The notes below the pieces were generated by a model. It did no database searches, had not been told where the DNA came from, and worked only from the letters and a program-made list of their open reading frames with translations. Of a DNA stretch of 64,000 nt, positions 1,622 to 4,110 are shown one piece after another. The position numbers and the translations under genes were made by a program. Origin of the DNA: Pseudoclavibacter triregionum (GTDB lineage: Bacteria; Actinomycetota; Actinomycetes; Actinomycetales; Microbacteriaceae); NCBI GenBank assembly GCA_910822395.1, contig OU365335.1:1736001-1800000 (forward strand), written 5' to 3'. Each line of letters begins with the position of its first letter. The stretch's first letter is position 1.

Positions 1622-1635
1622 ATGCCATGCGGTCG

Positions 1636-1708
1636 TGCCCCCGACAGGAGTCGAACCTGCGACCTACGGTACCGGAAACCGGCGCTCTATCCACTGAGCT
1701 ACGGAGGC
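1636..1708 (-). tRNA. tRNA-Arg (anticodon CCG)
   Basis: The minus strand folds into a standard 73-nt tRNA: acceptor GCCTCCG/CGGGGGC with one T-G wobble, D-arm GCTC/GAGC, anticodon arm CCGGT-TTCCGGT-ACCGT with anticodon CCG reading CGG, and T-arm GCAGG-TTCGACT-CCTGT. The discriminator is A and CCA is not encoded. The outermost anticodon-stem pair (27-43) is a C-T mismatch; all other stems pair. A TAGGCT at 1726-1721 (minus) is a suitable -10 box. The 3' end faces the hairpin at 1586-1621. Confidence 0.95.
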
Positions 1709-1813
1709 GAACGAGGACCGAGCCTAGCAGGCGAGGCCGCGCGAAAGGCGCACCGACGGGGAGGCATCCGCGACCTCGTTCGCGGTCGCCGCGCCGTGCC
1801 ACACTTGTCCACC

Positions 1814-2608
1814 GTGCAGCGCCATGTCACCTCGACCATCGAATTCACGCTCGGCAGCCCGGCGGACGTCGTCTACTCCGTCGCCGCCCACCAGCTCGCG
1901 ACGCTCGCGAGCGAGGAGCTCACGATCCTCGCCGACGGCGAGCCGATCGAGGTCGTCGAGGCGATCGACCGCGCCGAGTGCCGCCTGCACCGCATCTCCA
2001 CGGACGCCTCGCGCGTCACGCTCGAGTACCGGGCCACGATCGACGGCTTCGCCGCCCCGAACGTCCCGGCCGAGCTCGACCGCATCCACTACCTGCGGCC
2101 CTCCCGGTACGCCGAGTCGGACATCCTCGGCCCCACGAGCCGCGCGCTCTTCCGCGGCCTCAAGGACTTCGAGCTCCTCGACGCCGTCGTCGACTGGGTC
2201 TCCTCGAACCTCCGCTACGTGCGCGGCTCGAGCCTGCCGACGGACGGCGCCCGCGACACCTTCCTCAAGCGCCAGGGCGTGTGCCGCGACTACGCGCACC
2301 TCGTCATCGCGCTGCTGCGCGCGCACGACGTGCCCGCGCGCCTCGTCTCCGTCTACGCCCCGGGCCTCGAGCCGATGGACTTCCACGCCGTCGCCGAGGC
2401 GCTCATCGACGGGCAGTGGTGGGTCGTCGACGCGACGCGCCTCGCCCCGCGCCACCTCATGCAGCGCATCGCGACGGGCCGCGACGCCTCCGACACGGCG
2501 TTCCTCTCCTACACGCTCTCCAACCTCAAGCTCACGAAGCTGCTCGTCATGGCGACGGCGGACGAGTTCACGCCCGAGGACCCCTCGGCGCGCGTGCAGC
2601 TGCGGTAG
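1814..2608 (+). CDS. Transglutaminase-like domain protein
   Basis: A 264-residue protein with an N-terminal beta-rich region (about 1-110) and a C-terminal transglutaminase-like (cysteine protease fold) domain. The catalytic triad is visible: Cys157 in QGVCRDYAHL, His191 in MDFHAVAEAL and Asp206 in WWVVDATRL. In the family this domain acts as a peptidase, amidase or transglutaminase; the substrate cannot be told from sequence. No signal peptide is seen, so it is probably cytoplasmic. The GTG at 1814 is chosen because a CACACT hexamer lies 9 nt upstream, which suggests a leaderless message; there is no ribosome site. An IS110 element has landed just downstream of the stop codon. Confidence 0.8.
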   Translation: MQRHVTSTIEFTLGSPADVVYSVAAHQLATLASEELTILADGEPIEVVEAIDRAECRLHRISTDASRVTLEYRATIDGFAAPNVPAELDRIHYLRPSRYAESDILGPTSRALFRGLKDFELLDAVVDWVSSNLRYVRGSSLPTDGARDTFLKRQGVCRDYAHLVIALLRAHDVPARLVSVYAPGLEPMDFHAVAEALIDGQWWVVDATRLAPRHLMQRIATGRDASDTAFLSYTLSNLKLTKLLVMATADEFTPEDPSARVQLR

Positions 2609-2689
2609 CGGGCATCCGCGACCCCGTTACTTTCTTCGTGACCCGCTCGGCGGCCATGCTGGGCGGTGACGGCCTGCCGGGCCCGGCAT

Positions 2690-2850
2690 GATTGCTGCCC
2701 CCTGTCCTCGATGATCCGGGGGGTGTTGTCACCGGGCCTGGTTGGCGGTGTGTGATCGCTGATAGGGGCTGGACCCGAGCATGCTCGAGGCCGTTCGTAA
2801 CGTGGATGCCGAGACGCGCCGCCGCGGACGCCGTCACGAGTGAAGCGGAG
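2690..2850 (+). ncRNA. Candidate IS110 bridge RNA
   Basis: The leader upstream of the transposase can fold into a nested structure. 2697-2706 (GCCCCCTGTC) pairs with 2761-2769 (GATAGGGGC) with one bulged C. 2709-2712 (CGAT) pairs with 2755-2758 (ATCG). A large asymmetric internal loop (2713-2729 against 2751-2754) follows, closed by 2730-2734 (CACCG) with 2746-2750 (CGGTG) around an 11-nt loop. This is followed by a palindrome at 2776-2787 and a small hairpin at 2792-2802. IS110-group elements encode a guide (bridge) RNA with such internal loops in exactly this place. The 8-mer ATAGGGGC (2762-2769) also occurs at the right end (4083-4090), as expected for a donor guide. Ends and function are inferred. 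Confidence 0.4.
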
Positions 2851-2856
2851 GACGAA

Positions 2857-4074
2857 GTGGTCACCAGCATCGACAGATACGACGAGGTCGACGTGTTCGT
2901 TGGGCTCGACGTCGGCAAGGGCGAGCATCACGCGGTCGCGCTCGACCGGGAAGCCAAGCGACTATTCGACCGAGCACTCCCGAACGACGAGCGCCAATTG
3001 CGGGCGGTGATCGACCAGCTCGCCTCGCATGGCGTGGTGCTGCTGGTCGTAGATCAACCCGCGACGATCGGTGCACTCCCGGTCGCGGTCGCGCAAGCCG
3101 CAGGTGCTCTCGTTGGTTACCTGCCGGGGTTGGCGATGCGGCGCATCGCGGATCTGCATCCCGGTGAGGCGAAGACCGACGCGAGAGACGCGGCGATCAT
3201 CGCCGAAACGGCCCGCACCATGCCGCACACGCTCCGGTCGATCCAGGTCGCCGACGAGAAGGTCGCGGAGCTGAGCATGCTCTGCGGGTTCGACGACGAC
3301 CTCGCCGGTCAGATCGTCCAGGTCTCCAACCGGATCAGGGGTCTGCTCACCCAAATCCACCCGGCGCTGGAACGCGTGCTCGGGCCGCGGCTGGATCACC
3401 CCGCGATCCTGGACCTGCTGCAGCGCTACCCGTCGCCGGCGGCGATGAAGACTGCGGGTGAGAAGCGGCTAGGGAACCGGCTGCTGAAGAACGCGCCCCG
3501 CAAAGGTCGTGTCTGGGCGGCAGAGATCATGACCGCGCTTGACGAGCAGACCGTCGTGGTGACCGGCACCGACGTCGCCGCGCTGGTGCTCCCCAGGCTC
3601 GCAGAGCAGCTCCAGGCGTTGCGACGGCAGCGTGATGAGATCGCCATCGAGGTCGAGAAGATCGTCGACGCTCACCCTCTTCAACCGGTCCTGACGAGCA
3701 TGCCCGGAGTCGGCGTCAGGACCGCAGCCCGGCTCCTCACCGAAGTCACCACCAAGACCTTCGCCACTGCCGGGCACCTCGCCGCCTACGCCGGCCTCGC
3801 ACCCGTGACCCGACGATCCGGCACCTCGATCCGCGGCGAGCATCCCTCCCGGCGCGGGAACAAGATCCTGAAACGGACCATGTTCCTCTCCGCGTTCGCC
3901 GCACTCCGAGACCCCGAATCACGCGCCTACTACGACCGCAAGATCGCCCAAGGCAAACGCCACAACCAGGCCCTCATCGCCCTAGCTCGACGCCGCTCCG
4001 ACGTCCTCTACGCCATGCTCCGCGACGGCACCCTCTACCAACCGCGACCAGCCCAACCCGCCCTCGCCGCTTGA
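2857..4074 (+). CDS. IS110-family transposase (DEDD recombinase)
   Basis: A 405-residue protein, normal length for the family. The N-terminal RuvC-like (DEDD_Tnp_IS110) domain shows acidic residues at D18 (VGLDVGK), D66 (VVDQPATIG), D108 and D111 (KTDARDAAII); the second is Asp rather than the usual Glu. The C-terminal Transposase_20 domain carries a helix-hairpin-helix (LTSMPGVGVRTAA) and the RRSGTS motif around Ser321, the likely nucleophile. IS110 enzymes cut and join DNA at sites chosen by a bridge RNA. The GTG at 2857 is chosen for the GCGGAG site 6-7 nt upstream; the reading frame is open further upstream but would overlap the structured leader. The stop codon lies within a TTGACA at the right end. 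Confidence 0.92.
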   Translation: MVTSIDRYDEVDVFVGLDVGKGEHHAVALDREAKRLFDRALPNDERQLRAVIDQLASHGVVLLVVDQPATIGALPVAVAQAAGALVGYLPGLAMRRIADLHPGEAKTDARDAAIIAETARTMPHTLRSIQVADEKVAELSMLCGFDDDLAGQIVQVSNRIRGLLTQIHPALERVLGPRLDHPAILDLLQRYPSPAAMKTAGEKRLGNRLLKNAPRKGRVWAAEIMTALDEQTVVVTGTDVAALVLPRLAEQLQALRRQRDEIAIEVEKIVDAHPLQPVLTSMPGVGVRTAARLLTEVTTKTFATAGHLAAYAGLAPVTRRSGTSIRGEHPSRRGNKILKRTMFLSAFAALRDPESRAYYDRKIAQGKRHNQALIALARRRSDVLYAMLRDGTLYQPRPAQPALAA

Positions 4075-4076
4075 CA
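4071..4076 (+). promoter_or_regulatory. Outward TTGACA (-35) at the IS110 right end
   Basis: A perfect -35 hexamer overlaps the transposase stop codon and points out of the element. In several IS110-family elements a -35 at the right end joins a -10 at the left end when the element circularises, giving a junction promoter. CATGAT at 2687-2692 is a possible partner, with spacing that depends on the true ends. It is 34 bp from the argS -10 box, too far to serve argS. Confidence 0.4.
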
Positions 4077-4110
4077 GAGGACATAGGGGCACCCCCCCCG
4101 CGCCGCCGCG

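What the first reader, a model, noticed from the sequence alone, without database searches (positions are those of the whole stretch)
2690..2856. Undescribed candidate bridge RNA in the IS110 leader
The leader folds into a nested stem-internal loop-stem structure (2697-2706/2761-2769, 2709-2712/2755-2758, 2730-2734/2746-2750) whose large asymmetric internal loop (2713-2729 against 2751-2754) resembles a target-binding loop. ATAGGGGC recurs at the element's right end (4083-4090), as a donor guide would. IS110 bridge RNAs are an established class; this one I infer from position and fold.
Basis: partly seen in the sequence, partly recalled or inferred. Interest (0 to 1): 0.75.

Follow-up and report, generated by a model that had tools for sequence, protein, structure and literature searches.

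The report
Bridge RNA gene targeting C-tracts
The stretch in front of this jumping gene most likely encodes the guide RNA that tells it where to insert, here into runs of cytosine; the kind of system is known, but its guides and boundaries can be read off from relatives.

Summary
The fold, the target loop and the left boundary were wrong. The element is 2626-4091 and sits in a C tract (CCCC | GTTAC...ATAGGGGCA | CCCCCCCC). A different structure has 18 pairs with changes on both sides: two stem-loops with internal loops, as in IS621. Guides: LTG CCCCC (2698-2702), RTG GGGGGG (2718-2723), LDG ATAGGGGC (2762-2769), RDG GTAACG (2797-2802). All four change in step with DNA in relatives, with exceptions. 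Of seven elements with a clearly different RTG, five match their own right flank in 6, 6, 6, 6 and 5 of 6 bases; two (L166, L110) match 4 and 1. Uninterrupted targets of two other elements show one shared C at the exchange point, not the CT of IS621. New member of a known kind; unusual in its homopolymer target and its mutually complementary guides. No transcript or recombination was shown.

The parts
2626..4091 (+). whole IS110-group element (LE 2626-2856, recombinase, RE 4075-4091), flanked by CCCC (2622-2625) and CCCCCCCC (4092-4099)
   Evidence: ends shared by relatives with different flanks; C runs counted; single full copy in the genome
2640..2830 (+). bridge RNA gene, extent approximate (start inferred from the -10 position, end from the closing stem at 2823)
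   Evidence: consensus structure with covariation; covariance model R1 match 2668-2825, but the window is in its training set
2643..2666 (+). 5' hairpin (2643-2652/2657-2666)
   Evidence: single-sequence fold; 34 of 42 leaders have a helix of 6 bp or more, against 1362 of 2100 shuffles, mean z -2.66: modest support
2676..2742 (+). target-binding stem-loop: stems 2676-2686/2732-2742, 2689-2692/2728-2731, apical 2704-2706/2713-2715
   Evidence: changes on both sides in 5 of 10 outer-stem pairs over 42 sequences
2698..2702 (+). left target guide LTG, CCCCC
   Evidence: matches the left flank; eight natural variants match their own left flanks in 46 of 56 positions, reached by 40 of 40320 permutations
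2718..2723 (+). right target guide RTG, GGGGGG
   Evidence: complementary to the right flank CCCCCC; variants in other elements match their own right flanks
2744..2823 (+). donor-binding stem-loop: stem 2744-2753/2814-2823 with 2756-2759/2808-2812, inner hairpin 2772-2774/2790-2792
   Evidence: changes on both sides in 7 of 10 pairs of the long stem
2762..2769 (+). left donor guide LDG, ATAGGGGC
   Evidence: identical to RE 4083-4090; 8 of 8 identical in 108 of 155 loci
2797..2802 (+). right donor guide RDG, GTAACG, complementary to CGTTAC at 2625-2630
   Evidence: two other forms fit a changed LE start in relatives (GTAATG/CATTAC, CATAACG/CGTTATG)
2626..2633 (+). LE start: right donor GTTAC and presumed promoter -10 TACTTT (2628-2633)
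2857..4074 (+). IS110 recombinase, 405 aa, GTG start, no internal stop
   Evidence: PF01548 E 3.9e-48 and PF02371 E 1.8e-21; open frame; phmmer to IS621 (8wt6) E 1.4e-15
4071..4076 (+). TTGACA, presumed -35 that would pair with the LE -10 across the circle junction; overlaps the stop codon of the recombinase
   Evidence: where the right end was located by an exact LDG copy alone, TTGAC lies within 24 nt upstream in 55 of 56 loci, background 228 of 12300
4083..4090 (+). left donor LD, ATAGGGGC, at the right end

Best explanation
2640-2830 encodes the bridge RNA of a single-copy, apparently intact IS110-group element (2626-4091). In the excised circle RE and LE would be joined as ATAGGGGCA-C-GTTAC. 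That junction brings TTGACA next to a -10 (TACTTT), which would transcribe the RNA, and is the donor read by LDG and RDG. The target loop reads a run of C: LTG CCCCC matches the top strand left of the exchange point, and RTG GGGGGG pairs with the top strand to the right. Exchange occurs at a C common to donor and target, giving CCCC|GTTAC on the left and GGGGCA|CCCCCC on the right. Shown here by sequence: boundaries, structure, guide-DNA matches and their co-variation, a one-base overlap in two other elements. Inferred: transcription, binding by the recombinase, recombination and present activity of this copy.
For: Structure: 43 pairs on 42 leaders, 96.1% of cells paired, 18 pairs with changes on both sides (shuffled mean 9.7), covariation score 0.262 (shuffled 0.171, slid versions at most 0.082). 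Target guides: 135 of 149 loci with both features match RTG to right flank in at least 5 of 6 bases; seven distinct variants with 4 or fewer G score 34 of 42, reached by 2 of 5040 permutations; LTG of eight variants 46 of 56, reached by 40 of 40320. Donor guides: LDG-LD 8 of 8 in 108 of 155 loci; 20 distinct LDG types 116 of 160, reached by 34 of 20000 permutations; RDG in two other forms fits a changed LE in 13 loci. A covariance model with the target guides left unpaired finds the RNA in 52 of 297 genomes of the order and 39 of 394 of the class, own genome included in both and some genomes shared; 111 of 131 model hits precede an IS110 recombinase on the same strand. Ten of 19 examined loci of relatives have the two neighbouring genes side by side without the element.
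Against: No transcript, binding or recombination data. Only one copy in this genome, so its target preference rests on relatives. Of the seven RTG variants L110 matches 1 of 6 and L166 4 of 6, and L166 matches only 3 of 7 on the left. Eight GGGGGG loci match the right flank in 3 or fewer bases: L003, L075 and L082 have CGTTA there, L067 is cut by the contig end after CCC, and L103, L153, L174 and L224 also fail. Of 31 model hits with an aligned RDG other than GTAACG, 16 do not fit fully or cannot be judged, among them six divergent loci (L155, L169, L170, L174, L178, L185) and three GTAATG loci (L177, L179, L183). 20 of 131 model hits have no recombinase found behind them. Loci are related and a few were fetched twice, so counts are not independent.
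Confidence: 0.93

Rival explanations
1. One reading: a bridge RNA starting near 2690 with the helix 2697-2706/2761-2769 and a target loop 2713-2729 against 2751-2754.
For: The complementarities exist in the window.
Against: On 42 leaders 75.5% of cells pair against 75.6% in shuffles, one pair with a change on both sides against 1.6 expected; its long helix is not in the minimum-energy fold; it pairs two guides that relatives show to read different DNAs. Slid versions pair less (28-46%), so the window's own complementarity is real but not conserved.
Confidence: 0.02
2. The leader is only a structured 5' UTR that regulates the recombinase mRNA, without guide function.
For: It lies directly upstream of the start codon; that such a leader could be co-transcribed is an assumption.
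Against: Four separate stretches follow changes in flanking or end DNA, which a UTR would not explain.
Confidence: 0.04
3. Insertion at C tracts is a property of the protein or of DNA structure, and the G-tract in the RNA matches by chance or composition.
For: Most loci share both GGGGGG and C tracts (128 of 149 have GGGGGG), so those alone prove little.
Against: Elements whose RTG is TGAGCG, ATTTTG, GATTTG or AAAAAG sit at CGCTCA, CAAAAT, CAAATC and CTTTTT, with recombinases of the same family.
Confidence: 0.03
4. A dead element: the RNA gene is intact but this copy no longer moves (compatible with the best explanation).
For: One full copy only in 2.36 Mb.
Against: Reading frame open, both ends and all four guides intact and mutually consistent.
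Confidence: 0.3

Closest known systems
IS621 bridge RNA (IS110 group; Durrant et al. 2024 PMC11208160, Hiraizumi et al. 2024 PMC11208158)
   Same: RNA of about 180 nt in the left end; 5' hairpin, then a target loop, then a donor loop; guide order LTG-RTG-LDG-RDG; promoter rebuilt at the circle junction (sequence only here); PF01548 + PF02371 recombinase
   Different: target is a C run rather than a REP-type site; shared exchange base is C rather than the CT dinucleotide; LTG and RTG are complementary to each other
ISEc21 seekRNA (IS110 type; Siddiquee et al. 2024 PMC11187229)
   Same: upstream noncoding RNA with separate matches to both target strands; natural redirection in a relative (ISMch6) is reported there
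   Different: other target and sequence; no poly-C targeting in the two sections read (12, 13)
ISArsp5 (name from a plasmid annotation)
   Same: 70.4% identical DNA over 93% of the query, Arthrobacter plasmid
   Different: the features under the match list a transposase only; that record was not opened

Membership tests
IS110-group element with bridge RNA | RuvC-like DEDD domain PF01548 plus PF02371 domain with conserved serine | tested here: met
   both domains above cut-off; RRSG[STA]SIR motif in 60 of 81 sequences by a strict pattern, 21 not matched. The second acidic residue was not tested: my pattern matched none of 81
IS110-group element with bridge RNA | long non-coding LE, short RE, RNA in LE | tested here: met
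   LE 231 nt, RE 17 nt by the ends; model match in LE
IS110-group element with bridge RNA | two stem-loops with internal loops, conserved by covariation | tested here: met
IS110-group element with bridge RNA | target loop complementary to both strands of the insertion site | tested here: met
   exceptions L110, L166 and eight GGGGGG loci
IS110-group element with bridge RNA | donor loop complementary to RE and LE | tested here: met
   with the exceptions given under evidence against
IS110-group element with bridge RNA | promoter formed at the RE-LE junction | tested here: inconclusive
   motif and spacing only; activity not tested
IS110-group element with bridge RNA | RNA made and bound by the recombinase, RNA-dependent recombination | not testable with these tools
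   needs experiment
IS621-type subgroup | CT core dinucleotide at both ends | tested here: not met
   only one base, C, is shared: L078 against uninterrupted repeats, L159 against one uninterrupted but diverged relative. Not filed in this subgroup
IS1111 group | RNA in the RE and sub-terminal inverted repeats | tested here: not met
   RE has 17 nt, RNA lies in LE; the inverted-repeat part was not tested

The most novel reading that the evidence does not exclude
A lineage of bridge recombinases, spread over actinobacteria and Burkholderia relatives, whose home target is a homopolymer. The target guides are complementary to each other, so the free RNA carries a closed target stem that must be opened before use. 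The guide is itself a G tract whose length varies (5 to 13 G in relatives), which could tune or switch targeting by slippage, and sublineages have escaped by replacing the guide pair.
Probability: 0.25. Interest if true: 0.5.

Novelty: new member of a known kind. Interest (0 to 1): 0.37.

Why it matters
It gives a guide map for a bridge RNA clade that no Rfam 15 family matches, and a natural series of retargeted guides in one structural family, which points without experiment to the bases that choose the target. A recombinase that prefers C runs could insert widely in high-GC genomes. Guides that pair with each other also make a clean test of whether the target loop must be open before DNA is found.

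Tried and rejected
The idea that mutual complementarity of LTG and RTG is required: rejected as a rule, because L109, L159, L162, L199 and L091 share only 2 or 3 complementary bases in a row, against 5 in the window and L078; it follows from a repeated target. Core length from reading frame at the L004 site: dropped, because C tracts change length. Empty site for the window itself: relatives have the two neighbour genes adjacent, but the spacer is too diverged to count C. Empty sites for one G034 and one G265 copy: none found (5 genomes and 1 genome). Flank of L007: the two long matches in other genomes (G736, G769) end 214 bases short of the junction, not usable. The 5' hairpin test by helix length was weak. 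A pattern for the second acidic residue of the recombinase matched nothing, so nothing is concluded. My first count of TTGAC (139 of 140) was biased, because right ends had been located with a TTGAC-like pattern; one search repeats it without that pattern. My first LTG test (38 of 42, 2 of 720) used six elements picked by hand; one search adds L110 and L166. Literature: poly-C or homopolymer targeting by IS110 was not seen in the listings; these cover open PubMed Central papers only, show the top 15-20 entries of 69, 98 and 232 papers, and were not opened beyond the three papers cited.

Full report
What is in the window. The recombinase 2857-4074 (405 aa, GTG start) carries PF01548 and PF02371 and is a sequence relative of IS621 and ISCro4 in the PDB. 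The element is present once in a 2.36 Mb genome, apart from a 53-base partial match. The best matches among the 80 loci kept are in Microbacterium, followed by Leucobacter, Pseudoclavibacter, Cryobacterium and others, with further ones in Arthrobacter, Burkholderia, Paraburkholderia, Duganella and Pandoraea.

Boundaries. Lining up relatives with unrelated flanks gives a left end GTTAC[T/C]TT preceded by C and a right end TTGAC-N-ATAGGGGCA followed by C. In the window these are 2626 and 4091, with 4 C on the left and 8 on the right. The window holds only three tracts of seven or more C. Of 180 loci with a left flank, 167 end in C and 144 in CCC; of 155 with a right flank of at least 6 nt, 126 begin with CCCCC. 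Ten copies in one genome (G265) each have at least CCC on the left and six C on the right, at different places. At the L004 site the left flank aligns to its last base in L247-L253, 7 of 7 examined, none with the element there; a BLAST match to the right flank was reported in 1 of 7 (L252, not collinear). Judged by eye, L247 reads straight on: GCCGCCGCCCGCGCC where L004 has the element inside a C tract.

Structure. From 80 genome loci plus the window I set aside six (L055, L059, L062, L063, L079, L081) with broken, masked, partial or doubtful leaders, then any with N or under 160 nt, and kept 42 at or below 93% identity, aligned as A1. RNAalifold gives 43 pairs. Counting them: 96.1% of cells paired (shuffled 91.2), 18 pairs with changes on both sides (shuffled 9.7), covariation score 0.262 (shuffled 0.171, none of 500 as high; slid versions 0.039-0.082). 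The structure was derived from these same sequences, which favours it over the slid versions. The strongest helices are the target stem 2676-2686/2732-2742 and the donor stem 2744-2753/2814-2823. No Rfam family matches the leader.

Target guides. A covariance model (R1, 39 of the 42 sequences, L043, L056 and L057 left out for insertions or deviating loops, target guides modelled as unpaired) was run on 297 genomes of the order (52 with a match) and 394 of the class (39 with a match); both include the window's genome and they share some others. I fetched a part of the places. Of 131 model hits in what I searched, 111 are followed by an IS110 recombinase within 600 nt on the same strand; five of the other 20 have under 200 nt of sequence left. 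Of 209 loci examined, 149 gave both an RTG and a right flank: 107 match 6 of 6, 28 match 5, 6 match 4, 8 match 3 or fewer. Most (128) are GGGGGG and prove little alone. The informative ones, with 4 or fewer G, are L078 (TGAGCG at CGCTCA, 6/6), L159 (ATTTTG at CAAAAT, 6/6), L162 (GATTTG at CAAATC, 6/6), L199 (AAAAAG at CTTTTT, 6/6), L109 (AAAAGG at CCCTTT, 5/6), L166 (CGGGAG, 4/6) and L110 (CAGGCG, 1/6, a miss). Permuting these seven gives a score as high in 2 of 5040 cases. On the left side these seven and L091 match their own flanks in 46 of 56 positions, allowing a shift of one base, L110 with 5 of 7 and L166 with 3 of 7 (40 of 40320 permutations).

Donor guides. LDG equals LD in 8 of 8 bases in 108 of 155 loci, with changes in step (ATAGGGGC, ATAGGGAC, ATAGAGGC, ATAGAAGC, ATAGAGAC); other loci, among them those whose LDG has an extra base, match 3-7. 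The right ends were located with an ATAGGGGCA-like pattern, so LD variety is limited; the permutation control has the same limit. RDG: GTAACG with CGTTAC is the rule. Of 131 model hits, 45 have another or no aligned RDG (14 of these none or a fragment). Among the 31 with one, GTAATG goes with CATTAC in six (L106, L172, L191, L204, L234, L235) and CATAACG with CGTTATG in seven (L205, L207, L208, L210, L216, L220, L222); L212 and L236 have GTTATC, one base off; the remaining 16 do not fit fully or cannot be judged.

Exchange point. L078 and L079 lie in a genomic repeat whose uninterrupted copies read ACGCTCGCTCACC; the insertion in L078 gives ACGCTC|GTTAC and GGGGCA|CGCTCACC, so exactly one C is shared. 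L159 lies in what looks like an IS3-type gene (recognised by eye), whose uninterrupted but diverged relative (L272) reads CTCCCAAAATG; the insertion gives AACCC|GTTAC and GGGGCA|CAAAATG, again one C. The donor would then be ATAGGGGC-AC-GTTAC. IS621 uses CT, whose first base is described as less conserved (passages of PMC11208158). By this reading the window's original tract was 11 C (inferred).

Promoter. Where the right end was located by an exact copy of the LDG alone, TTGAC lies within 24 nt upstream in 55 of 56 loci (background 228 of 12300 random stretches). In 136 of 140 loci it stands 17-18 bases from the TANNNT position of the left end once the circle is closed around one C (located with a TTGAC-like pattern). 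This agrees with the circle-junction promoter described for IS621 (section 5 of PMC11208160) and ISEc21 (section 12 of PMC11187229). Here it overlaps the stop codon of the recombinase.

Comparison. Guide order, loop order, position in the left end and recombinase domains are those described for IS110-group bridge RNAs (PMC11208160 sections 5, 6, 7, 12; passages of the same paper). Co-variation of guides with targets across the family was reported there, and natural redirection in ISMch6 in PMC11187229 (section 12). What I did not see in print (listings) is a clade with a homopolymer target. In such a clade LTG and RTG are complementary to each other and pair in the single-sequence fold. Retargeted members mostly lose this (2-3 complementary bases in L091, L109, L159, L162, L199; 5 kept in L078), so it is a consequence of the target, not a requirement.

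Verdict.

Noticed in passing
L003, L075, L082 right flanks: Three elements with GGGGGG guides are followed by CGTTA(C/T) instead of C6, that is by a sequence fitting the right donor guide rather than the right target guide; perhaps insertion beside, or recombination with, another left end. No second bridge RNA on the same strand was found in these loci.
   Followed up: partly
L037, L007, L042, L056 target loops: The G tract of the right target guide varies in length from 5 to 13 G, as if by slippage.
   Followed up: no
window 4071-4076: The TTGACA of the presumed circle promoter overlaps the stop codon of the recombinase; TTGAC is kept in relatives.
   Followed up: partly
window 2692-4074: An ORF caller extends the recombinase to 460 aa from a TTG at 2692, across the RNA gene; I take 2857 as the start from the leader alignment.
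   Followed up: partly
window 1622-2608: The 328-aa ORF upstream overlaps a tRNA gene (1636-1708, minus strand), so its true start probably lies further downstream.
   Followed up: no
L078, L079: In Arthrobacter sp. MA-N2 three copies (two in L079, one with masked bases in its leader) lie in a genomic repeat containing ACGCTCGCTCACC, with guides to match.
   Followed up: yes
window, recombinase: The second residue of the DEDD motif looks like D (VVDQP) rather than E in this protein; judged by eye only.
   Followed up: no
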